Positions 1,987 through 29,777 of a DNA stretch of 30,694 nt are shown here, in pieces (position 1 is the stretch's first letter; every line of letters begins with the position of its first letter). This stretch comes from a virus. Below the pieces are notes generated by a model. That model searched no databases. It was not told where the DNA came from and saw nothing but the letters and a program-made list of their open reading frames with translations. Made by a program: the position numbers and the translations under genes. Location: positions 1 to 30,694 of IMG/VR virus record IMGVR_UViG_3300048828_000798; one strand, written 5' to 3'.

Positions 1987-4017
1987 TTACAGTAATAAAA
2001 ATGTTGTATCTGGGGTGGCTTGCCTTGTTGCTGCTCCATCAACGTAGATGTCTTGATTTGAGTGACGGGCTACAATATATCGAGGGTCCCCATTGGAATA
2101 TTGATTTAATTCGCCACTCGTATCTTGATACACTGGCATCTCAATGTAGTTATAGACTGGAGCAAATAATCCAACAGATGACGCTGTTTCATTATTTGCA
2201 CCTGGGTAACCTAAGTCCCTGTCGTGCCTTAAGTAATTGCCGAGTAAGTTGTATTCAAGATTTATTCCGTCATTAGGTGCAATACCACTAAAGTTCACAC
2301 AATTGTACAGACCCCTAAACTCAATGGCTGGGTAGAATTTCTTAGCGGTGGTTGTTGTTGTCTCCGAAGATACAACATCGGGGTATGAATATACAGGAAC
2401 AGTTACGCCCTGAATAGTTTTACTTCCTGCAAACTTCCAAAATACTGGCCTGAAACTCCCTCCTCCTTTTTGGCTTGGATGAATGGTTAGACCAGATTGA
2501 TTCTCCATAATGGCAGTTTTGAATAGCCCGTTGAATACAATTCCATCTGTTGGAGTATAAATAGTGCACTGCGAGGTCGCTAAGTAAAATAAGGGCACAG
2601 CGTGATCCATGTCATTGGCCGAGTGAGCAGTTACATCTGACCTATTTGCCTCCATGGCTCCATTTATTGTAACGCGAGATCCATCATAAGCCTCTATGAG
2701 AGCTGTAAGGGGTGGCTGAGCCTCAATATTAAAAGCACATGTGTCGATGTACAGAAACGCAGCACCTTCTGCGGCAACTATACTAGAACATTGTGTATTT
2801 GAGTTTGATCGAATGTGGAAATTTACATTCATCAGCCATGTAAAGTTGCCCCTTTTACCCGTATATGCACCCCAGATCGGACGCACACCTACAAAATCTG
2901 TAAGAGTAAATCGAATATCGCATCTTGCGGGACCTCCGGTAATGGGGTCACCACTCCACCCCTGGATTATTATGTTCCTTCCATCAATGCGTGTTCCCCC
3001 TGATAATGTTTGATTAACTGTGCCAATAACTCGATAGGTTATCTGTATGGCATCATACCCAAAATGGTGATTAAAGTACTGTTGAGCTGTTACGAGATCG
3101 GGGAATGTTACCTGCGGGACAACCTGACCGGAGAAAACGCTAGTGGGATGCTCTGTTGTAAACTGTGCAGTTGTAATTAATGGGTAACCGGTTGCCCCCG
3201 TTGCGGAAATACGGAATATAAAGGACTGGGGGTGAATGCTACCGTAATCGTAATAATCTAGAGTCACGCCAGCACCTGTGGCAGAAATTACATTTCCTGA
3301 AATTGATATACCAGTACCTTGGGTGTATGTAGTGTTAGTGTCCGTGTCAGTCCAAGGAACCTCGACAAACATCTTACCACTAGCAAGTTCGACGGGATAC
3401 TTCTTTCCGTTTTCAGAGTATCCAATTTTTACCAATCCTGCATCACTTGAAGTTGCGGTAGAATATGTGGTGTTGGTGTTACTCCAAGGTACATTAACAA
3501 CTAATTGATCGGCAGAATTATGCTGTACTGCATAGGTTCTATTAGCTGTAGGTGTTACACTATTTGCGGCAGTGTTTTGCTGTGTGTTACTACCTAGCTT
3601 ACTAAGGCCAGGAAGGGAGGAAGTAGCGGTACTGTAGGTTGTATTGCTCCAAGGAACATTAACAACTGCTTGGTTAGCGCTATTTAATTGTATTCCGTAA
3701 GTTCTGCCTGCGGTAGTTGAAACACTATTTGCGGCAACAGTTTGGTCAGTATTACTAAATAGCTCAATACCGCCAGGTACTGTATGAGTCGCAAGCGGGA
3801 GGCTGTAGTTATTTGCACCAGTTGCAATGCCGGAAAGTTTTGTTGTGTTAGTTCCGACCTCTCCAATAACTTCGTTTATTTTAGCCCGAAGGTTTTCAAA
3901 ATTAGTATCAACATCATCGTGTGACATCGGAACCCCTGAGCTGTTAGCGCGCAGCTTGATGCCACTACCGGTTGAATTTAAGTTAGAACTGCCGTCGTTT
4001 GCTAATGTCTGTGCCAT
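1987..4017 (-). CDS. Tail fibre with tandem repeats and a beta-rich distal region (676 aa)
   Basis: The N-terminus (MAQTLANDGSSNLNSTGSGI) contains KLRANSSGVPMSHDDVDTNF, typical of phage fibres that attach near the tail. Residues 81-236 hold three repeats of about 55 residues, marked by AANSV..TA.RTY..Q.NSA.Q.VVNVPWSNT and TTYSTATSS. A bridge with GISISGNVISATGAG follows. From about residue 310 the sequence is Asn/Thr-rich with short strands (IDGRNIIIQGWSGDP, SRVTINGAMEANRSD), consistent with a beta-helix or similar receptor-binding region. It begins the left-most unit controlled by a 24-bp element ending at its ATG. The ATG directly follows GTAAC, leaving no room for a Shine-Dalgarno sequence. 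Fibre role is confident; receptor unknown. Confidence 0.85.
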   Translation of the reverse strand: MAQTLANDGSSNLNSTGSGIKLRANSSGVPMSHDDVDTNFENLRAKINEVIGEVGTNTTKLSGIATGANNYSLPLATHTVPGGIELFSNTDQTVAANSVSTTAGRTYGIQLNSANQAVVNVPWSNTTYSTATSSLPGLSKLGSNTQQNTAANSVTPTANRTYAVQHNSADQLVVNVPWSNTNTTYSTATSSDAGLVKIGYSENGKKYPVELASGKMFVEVPWTDTDTNTTYTQGTGISISGNVISATGAGVTLDYYDYGSIHPQSFIFRISATGATGYPLITTAQFTTEHPTSVFSGQVVPQVTFPDLVTAQQYFNHHFGYDAIQITYRVIGTVNQTLSGGTRIDGRNIIIQGWSGDPITGGPARCDIRFTLTDFVGVRPIWGAYTGKRGNFTWLMNVNFHIRSNSNTQCSSIVAAEGAAFLYIDTCAFNIEAQPPLTALIEAYDGSRVTINGAMEANRSDVTAHSANDMDHAVPLFYLATSQCTIYTPTDGIVFNGLFKTAIMENQSGLTIHPSQKGGGSFRPVFWKFAGSKTIQGVTVPVYSYPDVVSSETTTTTAKKFYPAIEFRGLYNCVNFSGIAPNDGINLEYNLLGNYLRHDRDLGYPGANNETASSVGLFAPVYNYIEMPVYQDTSGELNQYSNGDPRYIVARHSNQDIYVDGAATRQATPDTTFLLL
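3310..3777 (-). repeat. Three fibre-shaft repeats (about 55, 57 and 44 residues)
   Basis: Copy 1 covers residues 81-135, copy 2 residues 136-192 and copy 3 residues 193-236. Copies 1 and 2 share AANSV, RTY, NSA and VVNVPWSNT; copy 3 is shorter, with (F)VEVPWTDT. The repeat is also visible in the DNA, for example the recurring TTGCTCCAAGG or TACTCCAAGG segments on the plus strand. Repeats of this type form fibre shafts and can recombine to change fibre length. Confidence 0.8.
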
Positions 4018-4041
4018 GTTACAATAATATTAGTGTTACAA
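4018..4041 (-). promoter_or_regulatory. 24-bp element copy A (putative phage promoter)
   Basis: Read on the minus strand it is TTGTAACACTAATATTA, then TT, then GTAAC. Two GTAAC boxes start 17 bases apart. The second box abuts the ATG at 4017. It lies within a 74-base gap between the 838-residue and 676-residue protein genes. The other copies are at 8245-8268, 23891-23914 and 28206-28229. Promoter function is inferred from repetition and position. Confidence 0.65.
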
Positions 4042-4091
4042 TTAAATTAGGTGCTAGATCCAAATAGGTCAAGCGTCCATGTTAGTAAAAT

Positions 4092-7905: not shown

Positions 7906-8241
7906 TTAGGAGAATACGCCTCCATCAATTTCTGTTTCTAAAGCTGTTACCCGGTCACTTGTTGTAGTTAAGGTGTCGCCAAGGTAATTTAATGCATCTT
8001 CTGTTGTGTGAATATGCGGAGGAAAGATAAGACCAGTGTTTGTCCAGTTAGTAGTCTCCATATTTTGGACATAGGGCAATGCACTCCATTGACTTACACC
8101 ATCTCCAATCTTAAATTTTTTAACCGTAGTATCTACGGAAGGTTCCGCATCCATAAGAATTGGATCAGCGGCAGCCCATTCAGCCGTAGTTCCCTTGCGG
8201 AAACTTATCCTAGCAGTTACATGTCTACTTGGCTGTGGCAT
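7906..8241 (-). CDS. Tropism-determinant N-terminal domain protein (111 aa)
   Basis: Residues 10-60 (RISFRKGTTAEWAAADPILM, then EPSVDTTVKKFKIGDG and W..LPY) are a strong match to the phage major tropism determinant N-terminal domain pattern, R-x-G-T-(T/A)-x-E-W. The rest (HIHTTEDALNYLGDTLTTTS, VTALETEIDGGVFS) looks like a short trimerising coiled coil. At 111 residues it may act as an adaptor on which longer fibres sit. It is the first gene after a 24-bp element and has no visible Shine-Dalgarno sequence. No C-type-lectin domain, template repeat or reverse transcriptase is seen, so there is no evidence for diversity generation here. Confidence 0.8.
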   Translation of the reverse strand: MPQPSRHVTARISFRKGTTAEWAAADPILMDAEPSVDTTVKKFKIGDGVSQWSALPYVQNMETTNWTNTGLIFPPHIHTTEDALNYLGDTLTTTSDRVTALETEIDGGVFS

Positions 8242-8244
8242 TAT

Positions 8245-8268
8245 GTTACTTTAATATTAGTGTTACAA
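8245..8268 (-). promoter_or_regulatory. 24-bp element copy B (putative phage promoter)
   Basis: Minus-strand reading: TTGTAACACTAATATTA, then AA, then GTAAC. It is identical to copy A except at the two variable bases. The second GTAAC ends three bases before the ATG at 8241. It fills most of the 36-base gap after the coiled-coil gene and precedes the three tropism-type genes. Confidence 0.65.
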
Positions 8269-8277
8269 TAACTCAAG

Positions 8278-19841: not shown

Positions 19842-20611
19842 ACTAAATCTCCAAATCCATACCAGCGTCCCCCGTTCCGATAAACCGAGCAAACTGAGAA
19901 CTGCTCGGATAAGATACTGCCCCGTGCGTTAAGGTTTGAAAATGTCACCGTTTTCCCTGCTTCTGTATTTATAAAAGTAAAAGAAATCCCATCCTCCGCA
20001 GTTACTGGAAGAAGTACATCTACATTAGCTGCCGCAGGGGCACAGTGGTAGACCCCTCCACTTTTATTAACATCAGCAGTGAAGCTACTTTCTTTATTTA
20101 TTACAGATAGCCTTAAATTAGAAACTCCTTTTATATTACCCGCCTCCACATCACCAGTAGATGATACAGAAAAAGAACCATTAGCGTAAGCAATGCTTGA
20201 TGGAATTATACTTCCTGTAAATTCTACTGTTCCACCTAGGTTAGCATCTCCATCAATGGTTAAGTTCCCATAAATTCGTGCATCATCTACATATAAATTG
20301 TAGTTATGGACTGCTGATGGAATCCTTAGTGTATTGTAGTCGGATATACTAAAGTCAATGTATGGTCTTATTCTATCTCCATCTAGTTGCCCCTCCCAGT
20401 ACTCACTACTTGGGTAGACAAGTATATCTGTCACCCATGGGGAGAATCCATCCGTAGGGTCTCCTCCATCGAGGTAATTTAGATTATGATCGGCGGCAAG
20501 GACTTGCAGTGGATATGCGGATTCATCAGGTGCCTCAGAAGATGATCCTTCAACAAAACTGATAAATTGATGAGCAGGCTGATTGCCCACGCTAATATCC
20601 GCTGATGTCAT
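19838..20611 (-). CDS. Virion/fibre protein, strand-rich (257 aa)
   Basis: Starts MTSADISVGNQPAHQFISFV. Residues 100-160 carry a short-strand series (LYVDDARIYGNLTIDGDANL, TVEFTGSI, SFSVSSTGDVEAGNI) like fibre shafts. The C-terminal 80 residues (VYHCAPAAANVDVLLPVTAE, ISFTFINTEAGKTVTFSN, YRNGGRWYGFGDLV) match a small beta domain I know from many phage appendage proteins, in which a final W-(Y/F)-x-x-G ends the chain. It overlaps both neighbours as ATGA. A capsid- or tail-attached fibre is most likely; no enzyme motif is seen. Confidence 0.6.
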   Translation of the reverse strand: MTSADISVGNQPAHQFISFVEGSSSEAPDESAYPLQVLAADHNLNYLDGGDPTDGFSPWVTDILVYPSSEYWEGQLDGDRIRPYIDFSISDYNTLRIPSAVHNYNLYVDDARIYGNLTIDGDANLGGTVEFTGSIIPSSIAYANGSFSVSSTGDVEAGNIKGVSNLRLSVINKESSFTADVNKSGGVYHCAPAAANVDVLLPVTAEDGISFTFINTEAGKTVTFSNLNARGSILSEQFSVCSVYRNGGRWYGFGDLV

Positions 20612-21387
20612 CTTGAATAAAATCCGCTAATTGATATTGTTTGCGTGTTATCTGAGTAGTTCATCGCATCGCTACCCAGGTTAATTATCTCATACTCGGA
20701 TGTTTCTGCATTACACGGGTAAACATAATTACCTCCATGCCCAATATGCTCCACCGAGTGATTAACCTTCTTATGGTATATGATTGGGTCAACTACGACA
20801 TGCCTATCTCCTTCTATTGCGACAATTGAACTAGCTAAGTTATTTGGCCCAAACTGACCGTCCTCATCGGTATCAATTGATACTTTATCCTTACCATCTT
20901 CTTGAAGAAAGGTATCAAACTTTGAGGTTGTCGGATTAAGTCTAATTGTAACTTTATATTTCGTGTTACTTTTTGAGTTAGATTCTGAAACTGTAATAAA
21001 TCCAGCGCCATCCATTCCAACCCGATCTACATCATCATACACAGAAAACTTAATCGAATATGTATCGGAACCTGGTGTTACGATTGAAAACTCAACCTCC
21101 GCACCATCAAGAACTATTTGAGGCGTAAGTGATCTATGTGCAGTTGCAGTAACTTTTGCAGCACCCGTGCCCTCAAGCTCAGATGACAAATACTCAATAC
21201 CGCCAGTCCATTCCGTAAAGTCAACATCATCAAAGTTGTCAACTACCTCGGAGTAGTGCCTACGGCGAATCCCTACAACCTTCCCCGTGAAATTAGTTAC
21301 CCTAAATGAGGTAGCCCGATGATACGGTATGGTTGTGTAACTGTTATCTGTGGTCGCTGCGAATGTCCCTGCCTTATTTAGATCCAT
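20608..21387 (-). CDS. Virion protein of unknown function (259 aa)
   Basis: Starts MDLNKAGTFAATTDNSYTTI, preceded by GGAAGG about 9 bases before ATG. It reads as alternating strands: FRVTNFTGKVVGIRRRHYSE, VDFTEWTGGIEYLSSELEGT, then a jelly-roll-like stretch (AEVEFSIVTPGSDTYSIKFS, KYKVTIRLNPTTSKFDTFLQ) ending TISISGFYSR. The middle resembles a carbohydrate-binding or lectin-like beta-sandwich, but I cannot name a family. It overlaps the 55-residue membrane protein by 14 bases and the next gene as ATGA, so it belongs to the same unit. A head or tail decoration protein is inferred. Confidence 0.6.
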   Translation of the reverse strand: MDLNKAGTFAATTDNSYTTIPYHRATSFRVTNFTGKVVGIRRRHYSEVVDNFDDVDFTEWTGGIEYLSSELEGTGAAKVTATAHRSLTPQIVLDGAEVEFSIVTPGSDTYSIKFSVYDDVDRVGMDGAGFITVSESNSKSNTKYKVTIRLNPTTSKFDTFLQEDGKDKVSIDTDEDGQFGPNNLASSIVAIEGDRHVVVDPIIYHKKVNHSVEHIGHGGNYVYPCNAETSEYEIINLGSDAMNYSDNTQTISISGFYSR

Positions 21388-21541
21388 CTTTTTTGTCCTT
21401 CCCCTTTAGCTTTTGGTATATGCTAACACTCAGATGGATTGCCGTCAATAGGGCGCATACAGTTGCCGTAACTAAATGTATGGTATCTAAGGTAAAACTA
21501 GCAAATGTACCCGCAAATCCCACAGCGGTGTCTCTGTTCAT
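21374..21541 (-). CDS. Small single-pass membrane protein, candidate holin (55 aa)
   Basis: The 55-residue frame runs from ATG 21541 to TAA at 21374-21376. It is supported by an ATGA overlap with the preceding gene, a GAGGG box about 6 bases upstream, and a coherent product: MNRDTAVGFAGTFASF, a hydrophobic segment with LVTATVCALLTAIHL at about residues 23-37, and a tail rich in Lys (YQKLKGKDKKDGSK). One membrane helix with a basic C-terminus is the layout of small class II holins of T7-like phages. Its place between virion genes is unusual but known in compact phages. An alternative is a membrane-associated virion component. Confidence 0.6.
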   Translation of the reverse strand: MNRDTAVGFAGTFASFTLDTIHLVTATVCALLTAIHLSVSIYQKLKGKDKKDGSK

Positions 21542-21906
21542 TTCTTACCCTCGAGCGGATCTTCTACTTCTGCCTTCCCGACTTTAACTAAATCCTGAGC
21601 TTTCTTTTTAGACTCCCCCGCTGGTTTGCTTTCTTTCTCTGCATACACTGCATTGGGATTTTTGTCTGCCTCCTGCTGTTGCGTCGCGAATAGACGATAC
21701 GATACCTGGGGAAGCGTCAGCTTTTTTTTTAGCCCTTCGTAGGTTTCCTTGGAGAGTTCAGAAATTAAGTCACCGTGCATCTTGATAAGAATCTTAGCAT
21801 CCTTATCTTCGTATGCCCCGAACCCTCTTTCCTTTGACCCAATCATTAGGGAGTCGTAATCTGCTCCGTATTCGTAAGGTACCTTATTAAATAATAAATA
21901 CTTCAT
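21538..21906 (-). CDS. Small charged protein after the capsid gene (122 aa)
   Basis: Starts MKYLLFNKVPYEYGADYDSL; the first 70 residues look folded (FGAYEDKDAKILIKMHGDLI), followed by a Lys/Glu-rich, probably disordered tail ending EDPLEGKK. No family is recognised. It is the first gene after the hairpin terminator that follows the capsid gene, so it is presumably made from read-through or a separate weak promoter; no copy of the 24-bp element lies before it. Position suggests a head-completion, decoration or head-tail protein. No ribosome site is visible before its ATG. Confidence 0.6.
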   Translation of the reverse strand: MKYLLFNKVPYEYGADYDSLMIGSKERGFGAYEDKDAKILIKMHGDLISELSKETYEGLKKKLTLPQVSYRLFATQQQEADKNPNAVYAEKESKPAGESKKKAQDLVKVGKAEVEDPLEGKK

Positions 21907-21914
21907 ATATAAAG

Positions 21915-21963
21915 AAACCCTACCCCCTCTCCCCCGATATTCAGTGGAGAGGGAAGTAGGGTT
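21915..21963 (-). terminator. Hairpin terminator after the capsid gene
   Basis: Outer arms AACCCTA/TAGGGTT and inner arms CCCTCTCC/GGAGAGGG form a long GC-rich stem with a small interior mismatch. On the minus strand it is followed by a T-rich tail (TTTCTTTATAT). It fills the 68-base gap between the capsid gene and the next gene. It would end or reduce transcription after the capsid gene. Confidence 0.75.
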
Positions 21964-21974
21964 CTATTTAAGGA

Positions 21975-23870
21975 TTAAAGGTAAGATGACCAGCTAGTAG
22001 CCTCTACATTTGCATCGAAATTCTCGATAATCAAGTGGCGAGCAGGAACATCCATCATGGTTGTCCATTTAGTGGAACGCAAGGAGTACTCAGTCTCTTT
22101 GTGCGCCATACGACACTTGTATTTCTCTTGAGTTTCAGGATGTGGTTGCTTGCGGGTTACTGCGTTAGTACCGGCAATACCGATTTTAACATCAGACCAA
22201 TCAATGAACCACATTGCACGCAACACTTTGGATGCTGTAGTGGCACCTACGATTGCTTGAGCAGAACGCTTTCCGTCAGACTTAATGACTTTATCTCCAT
22301 CAGCAGGACCGTTAGCTCCGAAGAAGCTGGACTGATGATTCAAGATGTCATCGAAGTAAGGATCATGGAAGACAGCTAACTGACAACCAACTTCAGGAAG
22401 ATCATACATGGAATAGTTGAATAACAAAATTCCGTTATGAGTGATCTGCTGGTTGATTTGAGCATTGCGATCTAATCCCCAACCGTAACGAGCCTTGTAG
22501 TACTTATTAAATACTTCGAAAAGCTTGTTGTAGGTGAAGCGGTCAGTCATGCAGTCAATAACACTGATGTTTGATCCGTCTTGCTCCCGGTTGCGCTTCA
22601 AGTAGTAGATGTCAGCCATCAAAGACTCAAGGGTCAAAGCTCCACCGCCGTTATTTTTGATCCGGCTAGACTCACGAAGCAATGCGCGAATACCAAGTGC
22701 ATTTGACTTGTACTCGAGCGTGCAGGAATCATCTTCCGGATCAGTAACAGCAGGAAGATTCATGTAGGTTTCTGGAGTTTGATTCTCCGAGATAGCCTGA
22801 TTGAACCAAGTGGCGCGTAACCATTGCTCTTGAGAAGCTTTTGCGGCAATCTTGTTTTGCTCAGCAAGTGGTTGATAAACCATGGACTTCAAGTAAGGGT
22901 TCACATCACCCGACATGATCTTTTGAAGAGTTTCCTTATAAGTTTGATCAACTGTACGAGATTCACGGGTAGTTTGCAACCAGTTGACGATCAACTTAAC
23001 ACTGAGGTCGGTTGGCTGATTTCTGCACCATTCTTCGAAATCATTAACATTATTGGCGATAGTTTGAACTACACCTTTAACGATCTCATAGTCGAGTTTG
23101 CCAGCAAAGCCAGAACCTACATTTCCACGGGTTCCCCATTCTGCAACAGAGTAACCGGATTCACCATTTGCTTTCTCTTGCTTGATGTCGGGACCGACAG
23201 GGCGAAGAGTAACTTTAGCTTTGGCAATTCCACCTGCAGTAGCATCAGCAGAACCAATGATTTTAAACTGAGACTCAATTGGGTCTTCGTTTGAATCCCA
23301 TGAGTTTGCAATTAAGAAACCGCCAGCCAAGAAGTAACGTTCGATGTGTTCGATTGGGGAAGCCCAGTCAGAAGCACCGAGGTTTACGGTAAACTCTTGG
23401 TCACCACCACCGATTGTGTATCCAGAAACAACAGGGGAGTTTTGATCGGCAGCTTTTCCGCCCTCTACTGCAAAGTACCCACTATTGATAACCGAACGCT
23501 GACGGCGTTGGATGTATGGAAGAATGATTGATTGCTCGGAAATATTTACACGATTAATCAACGGCTTGATATTAGTTACTGAACTATTAAGAAGAGCAAC
23601 TAAGCCACGCTCTTGCACACCAAGCATTTTTGCTTCTGCAGAGCTAGCTATCACGCGAGCTAAATCAATCTCTTTATTAGAAAGAGCTTCAAATTCCGCA
23701 GGAGTTAAACCCTTGATGGATGCGTTAGTAAGTGTGCAACCAGTGGAATCATCTACTTTAATGATACGCCCAAACCCAGCATCACGCGTAAGGTTAGAGC
23801 TAGTGATTGCGGTGTTTCCCGGCTCAACAGATTGACCTGGAGTGGGCATGTTTGGATCGCTTATAGCCAT
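21975..23870 (-). CDS. Putative major capsid protein (631 aa)
   Basis: Position after portal and scaffold, a private upstream 24-bp element, and a strong terminator behind it all indicate an abundant head protein. Starts MAISDPNMPTPGQSVEPGNT. Helical stretches (LTPAEFEALSNKEIDLARVI) and a strand-rich region (SGYTIGGGDQEFTVNLGASD) precede a long helix-rich middle (DFEEWCRNQPTDLSVKLIVN), and the end has YSLRSTKWTTMMDVPARHLI. At 631 residues it is much larger than a typical 300-450-residue HK97-fold capsid protein, so it may carry an inserted domain. Arginine codons in the parts I checked are mostly CGT or CGC, unlike the AGA/AGG/CGA mixture of its neighbours, which fits high expression. A decoration or tail role is a weaker option. 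Confidence 0.7.
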   Translation of the reverse strand: MAISDPNMPTPGQSVEPGNTAITSSNLTRDAGFGRIIKVDDSTGCTLTNASIKGLTPAEFEALSNKEIDLARVIASSAEAKMLGVQERGLVALLNSSVTNIKPLINRVNISEQSIILPYIQRRQRSVINSGYFAVEGGKAADQNSPVVSGYTIGGGDQEFTVNLGASDWASPIEHIERYFLAGGFLIANSWDSNEDPIESQFKIIGSADATAGGIAKAKVTLRPVGPDIKQEKANGESGYSVAEWGTRGNVGSGFAGKLDYEIVKGVVQTIANNVNDFEEWCRNQPTDLSVKLIVNWLQTTRESRTVDQTYKETLQKIMSGDVNPYLKSMVYQPLAEQNKIAAKASQEQWLRATWFNQAISENQTPETYMNLPAVTDPEDDSCTLEYKSNALGIRALLRESSRIKNNGGGALTLESLMADIYYLKRNREQDGSNISVIDCMTDRFTYNKLFEVFNKYYKARYGWGLDRNAQINQQITHNGILLFNYSMYDLPEVGCQLAVFHDPYFDDILNHQSSFFGANGPADGDKVIKSDGKRSAQAIVGATTASKVLRAMWFIDWSDVKIGIAGTNAVTRKQPHPETQEKYKCRMAHKETEYSLRSTKWTTMMDVPARHLIIENFDANVEATSWSSYL

Positions 23871-23890: not shown

Positions 23891-23914
23891 GTTACACATT
23901 AATTCGTGTTACAA
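23891..23914 (-). promoter_or_regulatory. 24-bp element copy C (putative phage promoter)
   Basis: Minus-strand reading: TTGTAACAC, then GAATTAATGT, then GTAAC. The two GTAAC boxes start 17 bases apart as in copies A and B, while the centre has diverged. It lies 20 bases before the capsid ATG, leaving an AT-rich leader without a Shine-Dalgarno sequence. Confidence 0.65.
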
Positions 23915-23929
23915 TCATAATATCATGTA

Positions 23930-27656: not shown

Positions 27657-28005
27657 CTTCTGTGAAGTTAAACGGGTTGGGGATCGTATCCTTTGTGTAA
27701 TGCTGTAAATACCTGTGCTCGATTACCGTAAGGAGCAGTGAGAGCGATCCGGAGAATGGCTTTATTGATGTCAAGGTTTTGCAGAATGAATCGTGAGGCG
27801 TATGCAATAAACTTGAAAGTTCTCCGTAGTTCATTCTTAGGAAACCACATAATCTATCTACTCTCTGTTTGTCCCATCTTTTTCTTATTCCTAGACGCTC
27901 ATAATGAGCATCCATTAATACAGAAGCGGATGTAGCAAACTTAGAGTCCCCCGGAGCCTTCCTCTGTATCTCCCTCTTCCTCGGAGCTACTCTCGCTTTC
28001 TTCAT
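27646..28005 (-). CDS. Small basic protein before the portal (119 aa)
   Basis: I prefer ATG 28005 (MKKARVAPRKREIQRKAPGD); GTG at 28011 is an alternative, and an internal ATG at 27915 would avoid overlap but drop the basic N-terminus. The N-terminal 25 residues are Arg/Lys-rich. The rest (DRLCGFLRMNYGELSSLLHT, PFSGSLSLLLTVIEHRY) is helical and looks like a helix-turn-helix-type regulator or packaging accessory, but I recognise no family. It overlaps the end of the acidic gene upstream by 65 bases in another frame, and the portal start by 11 bases. Real gene likely, function unknown. Confidence 0.6.
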   Translation of the reverse strand: MKKARVAPRKREIQRKAPGDSKFATSASVLMDAHYERLGIRKRWDKQRVDRLCGFLRMNYGELSSLLHTPHDSFCKTLTSIKPFSGSLSLLLTVIEHRYLQHYTKDTIPNPFNFTEDGK

Positions 28006-28201
28006 CGTCACCGCCAGTTTTTGAAATAGTTATATCTGAATCATTGTCATTAAATGATGCAGAGAATTTTTTATCGGACAATTCCTTGACAGTAAAAGCC
28101 GCAGACAATCTAACCTCGTCTCCGACTTGAATGCCATCAAGCATTGTTAGAATATCTGGATACATTTCCAGGTCAAAATTTGCTAGTGATTCCATATGCA
28201 T
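27941..28201 (-). CDS. Small acidic head protein, capsid-staple-like (86 aa)
   Basis: Starts at ATG 28201 (MHMESLANFDLEMYP) or ATG 28195. Residues 20-62 (LDGIQVGDEVRLSAAFTVKE, then KFSASFNDNDSDITIS) have a V-G-D-x-(V)-x-L strand and a final I-x-I-S, similar to small capsid staple or head-stabilising proteins of tailed phages. The last 22 residues are almost only Glu, Asp, Ser and Gly. The pattern match is from memory and short, so the name is tentative. It begins the head unit: a 24-bp element lies in the 31 bases after the terminase stop. The sequence before the ATG has no Shine-Dalgarno box. Confidence 0.5.
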   Translation of the reverse strand: MHMESLANFDLEMYPDILTMLDGIQVGDEVRLSAAFTVKELSDKKFSASFNDNDSDITISKTGGDDEESESSSEEEGDTEEGSGGL

Positions 28202-28205
28202 ATTT

Positions 28206-28229
28206 GAAACTTATGTTTTAGTGTTACAA
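28206..28229 (-). promoter_or_regulatory. 24-bp element copy D (degenerate, putative phage promoter)
   Basis: Minus-strand reading: TTGTAACACTAA, then AACATAA, then GTTTC in place of GTAAC. The second box again starts 17 bases after the first. It occupies most of the 31-base gap between the large terminase and the acidic head gene. Confidence 0.55.
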
Positions 28230-28232
28230 AAA

Positions 28233-29777
28233 TCAAGCACCAATATCCATGATTTCAGTTTTAACCTCAGGAGTTGGACCAAGGCTCATTGAGTCGTAAT
28301 GAAGAAACACATACGACATTGCATCAAAGGGGTGTACATAAACGCTTCTCTTCGGTTTATATGATATATTTGGATCGTATGTTTTACCTTGTTTTTCAGA
28401 TATTAGATTCTGAAACATCTTACATATTGAAGTACATTGAGCAGATACAAGGAACTGCTCGCTCTGCAGTTTTGCGATTGTCAAGCGAACCCGTGACTCT
28501 ACGGATCCATTGAACTTCGGGGCGGCTCGCATCTTTATAGGTCGCAACTTGAATGTTTCTGCCTTCGATCTCGAAATCTCTTCTATATCTTTAACATCAT
28601 AGGATCCTGTCTTTGCCCTAAATTGATTGAATGCGGAGTTATCTGATACATGGTTAAATGTAAAGTCATGGTCGCACTTTCTATTCCAGTATGCCATTTT
28701 TCTCATGAGTAATGGAACTAAGGTAGTATATGGAAGCTTCTTATTTATGGTAACCAACTCATCAAACACCGTCCATATTGTTCTGTCGGCACCTGGTAAA
28801 GCTTGCATGAAGATACAGGCATTATTTACAGAACCGGGATCCCATCCGACTATTATCGGGTAATTTACATTTGGGAGAATGCCTGTTTTCGCATCCCCCC
28901 TCACATGTAGTGACTTATTAAAGTATGGGCCAAATATTGCATTACCCGCCGGTCGATCAATCCATTCACCCCGCACCATTCGTGCTTCCTCAATTGGGTC
29001 GGACTTAACTGCCTCTTGGATTCTGTCGTAGTATCCCGCAGGTAGGTTATCTATATTATCCTCTATCTTTACATGATAAACTGCGTAATCTGTATTCCAT
29101 ACTCCATCTTTATTGTATGGATCTTCAAAGAATCTCTTATATACCCAATGGCTCGGACCATCTGGATTGCAGGCTGCTAAATATTGCTGTGGGCCATGAA
29201 TGCCCTGCCTGCGACCTAACTGCTGAACTACTGCATTGAAGTAATCATCTGTATCTAAGTTTGTAAGCTCATCCACAAATATCAAAGACGGTTCAAAACC
29301 CTTAATTCTATCTTTAATGAAAGACCCATAAGGAACTGATATTAGGCACACTCTAGAGGATCCACCAAACCGATTCGTTATATCTATAAACAAGTTCTTT
29401 TGAGTGTCTTGCTTCTCATCTGTATGCACCAGGTTAATACCGTCCACCCACTCGGGAAGTATCTCCACTTGCAACTTGTGCCATACCCCACCCATTGTTG
29501 CCTGAGATCGCACACCGACAATTATTAAAGCTAGAGCATTAAAGTTTTCATAGCAATGACGCACCAACTTATGCCCACCAAGTGAATAGGTTTTCCCGGA
29601 ACCCCTTTCCCCATATGCAAGTATGTAATTAGATGGATCATCAAAGATCAGTCTCTGGGTTTTGGTTAACGATGGCAACCAAGGCTCAGACTCACCCTCT
29701 ACTTCAGGAGAGCTTGCCTCAGGTGCAAACTTCTCAATCAGTATTTTGTGGTCAATCTTTGTTTTCTTCTTTGGCAT
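28233..29777 (-). CDS. terL: Terminase large subunit (514 aa)
   Basis: Walker A is GERGSGKT (residues 56-63) and Walker B is LIFVDE (165-170), with the following Glu as the catalytic base. AACNPDG (201-207) fits the coupling motif. The nuclease domain starts at IIVGWDPGS with Asp313, continues with DNSAF near residue 380 and ends with FDAMSY near residue 490, matching the three acidic positions of the RNase-H-like nuclease. A Gln before Walker A (Q41) may be the adenine-binding residue. This ATPase-nuclease cuts concatemeric DNA and pumps it through the portal. It overlaps the small-terminase candidate by 26 bases. Length is normal; no key residue seems missing. Confidence 0.95.
   Translation of the reverse strand: MPKKKTKIDHKILIEKFAPEASSPEVEGESEPWLPSLTKTQRLIFDDPSNYILAYGERGSGKTYSLGGHKLVRHCYENFNALALIIVGVRSQATMGGVWHKLQVEILPEWVDGINLVHTDEKQDTQKNLFIDITNRFGGSSRVCLISVPYGSFIKDRIKGFEPSLIFVDELTNLDTDDYFNAVVQQLGRRQGIHGPQQYLAACNPDGPSHWVYKRFFEDPYNKDGVWNTDYAVYHVKIEDNIDNLPAGYYDRIQEAVKSDPIEEARMVRGEWIDRPAGNAIFGPYFNKSLHVRGDAKTGILPNVNYPIIVGWDPGSVNNACIFMQALPGADRTIWTVFDELVTINKKLPYTTLVPLLMRKMAYWNRKCDHDFTFNHVSDNSAFNQFRAKTGSYDVKDIEEISRSKAETFKLRPIKMRAAPKFNGSVESRVRLTIAKLQSEQFLVSAQCTSICKMFQNLISEKQGKTYDPNISYKPKRSVYVHPFDAMSYVFLHYDSMSLGPTPEVKTEIMDIGA

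What the first reader, a model, noticed from the sequence alone, without database searches (positions are those of the whole stretch)
4015..4041. Element abuts the start codon: possible leaderless or near-leaderless fibre mRNA
In copy A the second GTAAC is immediately followed by the ATG at 4017, and in copy B only three bases intervene. If the element is a promoter of the length seen, transcription would begin within or after it, leaving almost no 5' leader. The four genes behind the element have no Shine-Dalgarno box, whereas several genes inside units do (GGAGGT before 15576, GAGGG before 21541, GGAAGG before 21387).
Basis: partly seen in the sequence, partly recalled or inferred. Interest (0 to 1): 0.55.

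Follow-up and report, generated by a model that had tools for sequence, protein, structure and literature searches.

The report
Phage switch boxes at leaderless genes
A short, nearly symmetrical DNA box that recurs in front of genes in a family of uncultured phages looks like the docking site of a phage-made gene regulator, set over promoters placed so close to the start codon that several messages probably begin at their first codon, although the flagged fibre gene itself more likely has a leader of about 20 bases.

Summary
In detail: on the minus strand the box GTAACACTAATATTATTGTAAC touches the ATG at 4017, a second copy lies three bases from the ATG at 8241, and none of the four box-fronted genes shows a Shine-Dalgarno motif. 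It is not chance: 7 window matches against 0.17 expected. But the box is not the promoter. It is an imperfect 22-bp palindrome (GTNAC is self-complementary), replaced in a sister clade by another palindrome at the same genes, as expected of an operator coevolving with a phage regulator. Sigma70-type promoters lie over or beside it. In 23 of 49 non-redundant genes with a box next to the ATG, a promoter-like pair ends its -10 5-8 nt before the ATG (shuffles 2.5, maximum 6), so transcription would start at about the AUG; in the window this fits 8241 and 28201. For the flagged fibre gene (4017) and the 631-aa gene (23870) the better promoter lies upstream of the box, giving leaders of about 20 and 40 nt. 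So leaderlessness is supported for a class of genes, but probably not for the fibre gene. No transcript is mapped; regulator and host are unknown.

The parts
4018..4039 (-). Box (operator-like) copy A, GTAACACTAATATTATTGTAAC, in front of the fibre-like gene
4067..4072 (-). -35-like TTGACC of the best promoter for 4017 (spacer 17)
   Evidence: same geometry in G003 2367 and G007 30208
4044..4049 (-). -10-like TAATTT, ends 4 nt before the box; predicted +1 at 4037, leader about 20 nt (inferred)
   Evidence: not reported by the consensus scan
1987..4017 (-). 676-aa gene, fibre-like by position (followed by a tail-fibre-assembly-like gene 1724-1984); no Pfam or PHROG hit itself
8245..8266 (-). Box copy B, GTAACACTAATATTAAAGTAAC
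8271..8276 (-). -35-like TTGAGT for 8241 (spacer 17)
   Evidence: not reported by the consensus scan
8248..8253 (-). -10-like TAAAGT inside the box, 6 nt before ATG: predicted +1 = A of the ATG at 8241 (leaderless, inferred)
   Evidence: relatives G003 79453, G007 34081 and L027 17518 have TTGAAA-N17-TATTGT in the same geometry
7906..8241 (-). 111-aa gene with Mtd_N / tail-fibre N-terminal domain
23891..23912 (-). Box copy at the 631-aa gene, GTAACACGAATTAATGTGTAAC
23917..23925 (-). Extended -10-like TGATATTAT, ends 4 nt before the box; predicted +1 near 23910, leader about 40 nt (inferred)
   Evidence: TANNNT ending 2-7 nt before the box in 22 of 23 non-redundant orthologues with a recognised box, shuffles 6.3, maximum 13 of 500
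21975..23870 (-). 631-aa conserved protein (probably major capsid protein, by position only)
   Evidence: no PHROG or Pfam hit
28206..28227 (-). Box copy (one mismatch) in front of the 86-aa gene, GTAACACTAAAACATAAGTTTC
28231..28236 (-). -35-like TTGATT that contains the terL stop codon TGA (28235-28233)
   Evidence: not reported by the consensus scan
28208..28213 (-). -10-like TAAGTT, 6 nt before ATG 28201: predicted leaderless (inferred)
27941..28201 (-). 86-aa gene, first gene after terL
28233..29777 (-). terminase large subunit
   Evidence: phrog_2, 9.1e-24
20948..20969 (-). Box match inside gene 20608-21387; a match at a similar place in the gene of some relatives, where similar residues are encoded

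Best explanation
The box is the operator of a phage-encoded, dimeric, sequence-specific transcription regulator, most likely a repressor, distributed over roughly ten sites or more per genome. It is combined with sigma70-type promoters in two layouts. Class I: the box lies between -35 and -10 and over the -10, and the -10 ends about 6 nt before the ATG, so the host RNA polymerase starts at the A of AUG (or within a couple of bases) and the first cistron is translated from a leaderless message without SD. Class II: the -10 ends 2-7 nt upstream of the box, transcription starts inside it, and the box becomes the first part of an SD-free leader (about 20 nt for the fibre gene, about 40 nt for the 631-aa gene). 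In both layouts the bound regulator would block the polymerase. Shown: the box, its recurrence, its near-palindromy, the swap between two clades, its closeness to ATGs, lack of SD enrichment, ATG-aligned -10/-35 enrichment. Inferred: that the promoters work, the start sites, that the regulator represses and is phage-coded, and leaderless translation.
For: Recurrence: 19, 19, 18, 11 and 9 matches (up to 1 mismatch, both strands, palindromic places counted twice) in G001, G002, G003, G006, G007, against means of 0.15-0.55 in 20 first-order Markov copies. Class I: of 49 non-redundant genes with the box -2 to 8 nt before the ATG, 23 have a promoter-like pair (score 6 or more) with the -10 5-8 nt before the ATG, against 2.5 (sd 1.4, maximum 6) in 200 shuffles that keep the box and the ATG; the best promoter lies exactly 6 nt before the ATG in 14 of 49 against 3.0, maximum 7 of 300 shuffles. 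Other genes: 0 of 134 intergenic, 6 of 214 operon-internal and 1 of 15 unclassed genes pass. Class II: 22 of 23 non-redundant 631-aa orthologues with a recognised box have TANNNT 2-7 nt before it, 18 of them with an extended-10 TG, against 6.3 (maximum 13) in 500 shuffles (these are related sequences). terL/86-aa junction: in 37 non-redundant loci the distance from terL stop to ATG is 33-39 nt in 28; in 27 of the 28 loci with terL identity of 57% or more the stop codon lies in a TTGA; best -10 5-8 nt before ATG in 19 of 37, exactly 6 in 12 of 37, although the box between them differs between clades. Operator swap: clade-1 pattern (up to 2 mismatches) 17, 20, 16, 10, 9 hits in G001, G002, G003, G006, G007 and 1, 0, 1 in G004, G005, G008, the pattern read backwards giving 4 in G001, 1 in G003, 1 in G005 and 0 elsewhere; clade-2 pattern 11, 10, 6 in G004, G008, G017 and 0 in six others, backwards control 0 in all nine; same genes. 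SD: 82 of 220 operon-internal genes against 34 by shuffling, 3 of 49 near-box genes against 2.2. Precedent with a mapped 5' end: acuR of Rhodobacter (PMC3017554, passages).
Against: No RNA data. 23 of 49 near-box genes show no promoter of score 6 in either class. In the window alone the hexamers are weak: the consensus scanner reports none of the proposed pairs at 4017, 8241 and 28201; at 8241 it reports another minus-strand pair (TTGTAA, CATAAT) that runs into the start codon, one found against 0.6 expected. The promoter matrices are E. coli values from memory, and the host is unknown. That the -10 follows the ATG rather than the box is only a trend: with all 36 promoters of score 6 or more the two spreads are alike (sd 7.6 and 7.8); only the 26 with a gap of 3-12 show it (1.7 and 2.7). 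With full -35/-10 scoring, class II is not clearly enriched (near 4 of 49 against 2.0; far 6 of 29 against 2.1, shuffle maximum 7); it rests on the -10 of the 631-aa gene and on three fibre genes. The regulator is not identified. G002 1419 and 2108 carry AAAGGA inside the box, an SD-like motif. The box at 20948 lies inside a gene. The two clade-2 records with most hits, G004 and G008, look very alike, so the swap counts as few independent events.
Confidence: 0.66

Rival explanations
1. The box is itself the promoter of a phage RNA polymerase or a phage sigma factor, with transcription starting at its 3' edge.
For: Length of 22-24 bp, strong conservation, many sites co-oriented with and just before genes.
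Against: No single-subunit RNA polymerase (PF00940) in 8 relatives, though the control genomes did not ring either, so this is weak. Nearly palindromic, and the distance to the ATG varies (-2 to 25 nt, the limit of the search), while host-type hexamers are enriched at a fixed distance from the ATG. In the 631-aa gene a TANNNT hexamer lies upstream of the box in 22 of 23 orthologues.
Confidence: 0.15
2. The box is a site for an activator (late-gene activator) rather than a repressor.
For: It marks virion operons; -35 boxes of several sites are imperfect.
Against: It overlaps the spacer and -10 or lies at about +1 to +22, where binding blocks polymerase; near-consensus promoters such as TTGACA-N17-TAAATT (G003 40683) also carry it; the integrase gene carries it too.
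Confidence: 0.15
3. The box acts in RNA, as a 5' hairpin or translation signal in the leader.
For: Near the start codon; the GTTACAC..GTGTAAC leader of the L006-type 631-aa gene folds well (-8.1 kcal/mol, z -2.2).
Against: The two window leaders tested do not fold better than shuffles (z -0.09 and 0.24); many copies have A opposite A in the arms; in class I most of the box would not be transcribed.
Confidence: 0.06
4. For the fibre gene 4017: truly leaderless, from TATTAT at 4029-4024, 6 nt before the ATG.
For: TATTAT in the right place; the fibre relative in G001 (70841) has TTGACA-N17-AATATT 6 nt before ATG (class I score 9.5).
Against: No -35 in the window copy (class I score 2.1 against 8.1 for the upstream promoter, also 8.1 and 9.8 in G003 and G007).
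Confidence: 0.25

Closest known systems
acuR-acuI-dddL leaderless operon of Rhodobacter sphaeroides (PMC3017554; passages seen)
   Same: -35 TTGATT and -10 TATTAT placed so that the message starts exactly at the AUG; an 8-6-8 inverted repeat (22 bp) overlaps the promoter as operator; no SD at the first gene; downstream genes have SD.
   Different: One chromosomal autoregulated operon with a TetR repressor; here many sites over a phage genome, regulator unknown, start sites unmapped.
MrpR and the SPbeta repeated element (PMC10516654; abstract and one section seen)
   Same: A phage-wide set of repeated sites in promoter regions bound by one phage master repressor (ten peaks).
   Different: 15-bp motif, Bacillus prophage; no leaderless layout in what I read. 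A recombinase-like candidate exists here (int2) but is untested.
Stoperators of Cluster A and the 17-bp dyads of Cluster O mycobacteriophages (PMC4351075; passages seen)
   Same: Tens of short repeated sites scattered over the genome.
   Different: Stoperators are asymmetric; Cluster O dyads are described there as not closely linked to translation starts; here the box often sits at start codons.
Start-Associated Sequences of Cluster K mycobacteriophages (PMC3203893; passages seen)
   Same: Repeats tied to translation starts of a subset of phage genes.
   Different: SAS is a 13-bp asymmetric motif thought to act in translation initiation; here a palindrome, no SD enrichment, with promoter hexamers.
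TA-led (leaderless) genes of bacteria (PMC3160421; abstract seen) and -10-adjacent ORFs of Deinococcus-Thermus (PMC12340547; listing, short abstract and headings seen)
   Same: -10-like signal about 10 bp before the start codon.
   Different: Chromosomal genes without a shared operator.
Leaderless phage messages in general (PMC5312081 remarks that phage transcripts 'are often leaderless', two passages seen; lambda cI as the first case, in PMC3017554)
   Same: Phage messages without a leader are known.
   Different: No operator-fused, genome-wide layout is described in those passages.

Membership tests
Leaderless (TA-led) genes | -10-like hexamer about 10 bp before the start codon (with a -35 further upstream) | tested here: met
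   8241 and 28201: gap 6, spacer 17; class: 23 of 49. For 4017 not met by score (2.1).
Leaderless (TA-led) genes | No SD | tested here: met
   3 of 49 near-box genes against 2.2 expected; none seen at the four window genes
Leaderless (TA-led) genes | Message 5' end at the AUG and translation from it | not testable with these tools
   needs 5' mapping
Multi-site phage repressor regulon (MrpR/SPBRE-like) | One motif repeated in promoter regions over the phage genome | tested here: met
Multi-site phage repressor regulon (MrpR/SPBRE-like) | Phage-encoded repressor that binds it | tested here: inconclusive
   Candidates only: int2 in 9 of 16 records, the H of HxxR (motif recalled) replaced by D or N in 4 of 4 aligned copies, no PDB relative by phmmer at E up to 1; RHH-like protein in 3 of 16; MerR-like in 5 of 16; second RHH-like in 5 of 16. 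RHH and MerR are my reading of the sequences, not database hits. Most records are fragments.
Single-subunit phage RNA polymerase promoter | RNA polymerase gene in the phage | tested here: inconclusive
   PF00940: 0 of 8 records, but no control rang
Single-subunit phage RNA polymerase promoter | Asymmetric motif at a fixed distance from the start site | tested here: inconclusive
   Nearly palindromic, variable distance to ATG, host-type hexamers at two positions relative to it; start sites themselves are unmapped
Cluster K SAS | 13-bp asymmetric motif 5'-GGGATAGGAGCCC at translation starts | tested here: not met
   box sequence against the motif in PMC3203893

The most novel reading that the evidence does not exclude
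A whole family of uncultured phages runs its integrase and virion operons through one fused module: a 22-bp operator of a coevolving phage regulator laid over a sigma70 promoter whose +1 is the A of the AUG, so that the first cistron of many operons is leaderless by design and repression and start-codon placement are locked together, even using the terL stop codon as part of the next -35 box.
Probability: 0.5. Interest if true: 0.6.

Novelty: new variant of a known kind. Interest (0 to 1): 0.45.

Why it matters
In Proteobacteria several proven leaderless genes are low-level regulators (so PMC3017554, passage); here a conserved, systematic use in phage virion and integrase operons is predicted from a comparative signature, while the likely capsid gene keeps a leader. 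It gives direct predictions (5' ends at the AUG of 8241 and 28201, about 20 nt upstream of 4017, about 40 nt upstream of 23870) and a hunt for the regulator guided by two swapped operator specificities.

Tried and rejected
Set aside: box = T7-type promoter (no PF00940 hit, weak; behaviour); box as RNA hairpin; box as chance repeat. Host: one genome-contig scan confirmed 5 loci, all in metagenome bins (three contigs in one 'uncultured archaeon' bin, one Deltaproteobacteria bin, one Planctomycetaceae bin), not reliable; no match in the phage collection for the 631-aa and 759-aa proteins (tblastn, E 1e-5). Clades 3 and 4: CCTAA..TTAGG-like boxes at the same places in several loci, but the simple pattern ACCTAAN5TAGGT is found in 2 of 9 records and in neither G005 nor G018, so only the clade-2 swap is firm. 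Literature: searches; none of the listings showed a phage with this layout; the library is open PMC papers only. A Pfam hit to a T4 y05I-like putative transcription factor domain (4.9e-4, one of 35 proteins) did not appear among the 10 proteins rescanned and stays unassigned.

Full report
1. What is there. The window is a 30,694-base virus record whose recognisable genes lie on the minus strand: terminase (28233-29777), tail and fibre-like genes. The box stands at 4039-4018, 8266-8245, 23912-23891 and, degenerate, 28227-28206, before ATGs at 4017, 8241, 23870 and 28201 with gaps of 0, 3, 20 and 4 nt. Seven matches against 0.17 expected; of the seven, one is copy A read on the other strand, one is a doubtful intragenic match and one is intragenic at 20948.

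2. Relatives. A scan of viral contigs with the 631-aa protein gave 46 loci; a profile scan gave 79 (80 kept of 151, many the same). Five long relatives (56-81 kb) were read whole (with loci). They show 9-19 matches each with up to one mismatch, both strands, palindromic places counted twice, against 0.15-0.55 in Markov copies. In G001 I found two integrase-like proteins, a DnaB-like helicase and a 2926-aa polyvalent protein; one search lists their relatives in the other long records.

3. What the box is. GTNAC is self-complementary, so 'direct repeat' and 'inverted repeat' cannot be told apart from GTAAC alone. Relatives hold palindromes found on both strands at one place; my consensus is GTNACACGAA..TTCGTGTNAC. 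In L024, L025, L041, L042, L043 and L097 the place before the 631-aa gene holds GTTACTA-N10-GTAAC instead; boxes of this second kind also stand before the 86-aa gene (L041-L043), the 154-aa gene (L024, L025, L043, L097) and the 8241 orthologue (L025). Record-wide, each pattern is nearly confined to its own group: clade-1 pattern (up to 2 mismatches) 17, 20, 16, 10 and 9 hits in G001, G002, G003, G006, G007 and 1, 0, 1 in G004, G005, G008, with 4, 1 and 1 hits of the backwards control in G001, G003 and G005; clade-2 pattern 11, 10, 6 in G004, G008, G017 and 0 in G001, G002, G003, G005, G006, G007. The integrase gene carries a clade-1 box 0-8 nt before its ATG in 5 of 5 clade-1 records and a clade-2-like box 1 nt before it in G004 and G008; in G005 and G009-G012 only CCTAA-like sequences are seen, in G013 none, and in G014-G016 I did not settle the start. 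That is how operators of a coevolving phage regulator behave, and not how a host-recognised core promoter behaves.

4. Where the promoters are. I collected 78 non-redundant cases (upstream identity under 75%) of a box followed by an ATG within -2 to 25 nt: 49 with the box -2 to 8 nt before the ATG, 29 further away (about two thirds of them the 631-aa gene). With E. coli sigma70 matrices recalled from memory, the best promoter in the 49 has its -10 exactly 6 nt before the ATG in 14 and 5-8 nt before it in 24; 300 shuffles that keep box and ATG give 3.0 and 9.1 (maxima 7 and 16); the 29 far cases show no excess. With a threshold of 6, 23 of 49 pass in class I (shuffles 2.5, maximum 6) and 4 of 49 in class II (shuffles 2.0), one in both; 23 of 49 pass in neither. 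Of other genes, 0 of 134 intergenic, 6 of 214 operon-internal and 1 of 15 unclassed pass (gene calls are crude). Whether the -10 follows the ATG rather than the box is only a trend: sd 1.7 against 2.7 in the 26 promoters with a gap of 3-12, but 7.6 against 7.8 in all 36. Window genes: 8241 scores 7.2 and 28201 scores 6.2 in class I; 4017 scores 2.1 in class I and 8.1 in class II, with fibre relatives 8.1 (G003) and 9.8 (G007) in class II but 9.5 in class I in G001; 23870 scores 4.6 in class II, where the matrices ignore its extended -10 TGATATTAT. For this 631-aa gene, 22 of 23 non-redundant orthologues with a recognised box have TANNNT ending 2-7 nt before it, 18 of the 22 with a TG in the extended -10 position, against 6.3 (maximum 13) in 500 shuffles (34 non-redundant orthologues in all, 11 without a recognised box). 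A plain consensus scan of the window reports none of the pairs proposed for 4017, 8241 and 28201, so the case rests on the comparison.

5. The terL junction as a further test. In 37 non-redundant loci the distance from the terL stop to the next ATG is 33-39 nt in 28, and 33-38 nt in 25 of the 28 loci with terL identity of at least 57%; best -10 5-8 nt before ATG in 19 of 37, exactly 6 in 12 of 37. In 27 of those 28 loci the stop codon lies in a TTGA, the start of the -35-like box. The sequence between them differs by clade. The -35/-10/ATG frame is thus more conserved than the box sequence.

6. Translation. SD-like 4-mers stand before 82 of 220 operon-internal genes (34 by shuffling, 30 in a control window), so these phages do use SD. 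Near-box genes have 3 of 49 (2.2 by shuffling).

7. Mechanism and precedent. The acuR operon shows that an inverted-repeat operator over TTGATT/TATTAT with the message starting at the AUG is a working design (PMC3017554, passages). Multi-site phage repressors are known (PMC10516654, abstract and one section), and phage messages are said to be often leaderless (PMC5312081, passage). The combination, spread over a phage genome, did not appear in the search listings made. The regulator is open: int1 is in 16 of 16 records, int2 in 9, three other candidates in 3, 5 and 5.

8. Verdict. Observation confirmed. Interpretation partly supported: leaderless messages are well supported by comparison for a class of box-fronted genes, including 8241 and 28201, but the fibre gene of the title more likely has a leader of about 20 nt made of the box itself.

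Noticed in passing
window 20948-20969 (-), inside gene 20608-21387: A box match inside a gene; box matches lie inside the corresponding gene of some relatives too (G001 53663, G003 66597, G007 44201), where by my reading similar residues (SNTK..VTIR.NP) are encoded. Operator, roadblock or protein constraint is open.
   Followed up: partly
L079 18092-18700 (-) and other early genes of record G001: An E2-like hit (PF14460) here, and ThiF (E1-like) and prokaryotic-ubiquitin hits among 35 other G001 proteins (places not assigned): a possible ubiquitin-like conjugation set in the phage.
   Followed up: no
L079 64-8844: 2926-aa protein with a polyvalent-protein kinase-like stretch (PF18762) at the end of the record, with relatives in four other records.
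   Followed up: no
L079 9295-9432 and relatives in G002, G003, G006, G007: A conserved open frame of about 40-45 aa (MHTHII.. in G001) directly behind a box; possible small leaderless gene.
   Followed up: partly
L011 1585-2601 (+): Second recombinase-like protein with the H of HxxR replaced by D or N in 4 of 4 copies, about 200 bases before a palindromic box (G001 43571); possible regulator.
   Followed up: partly
window 3476-3777: A 137-base direct repeat, 165 bases apart, 70% alike, in the fibre-like gene.
   Followed up: no
G010 62991-63563; G006 45058-46098; G003 21115-22155 and others: Single stop codons are counted in several recombinase matches; they may lie at the end of the match; not pursued.
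   Followed up: no
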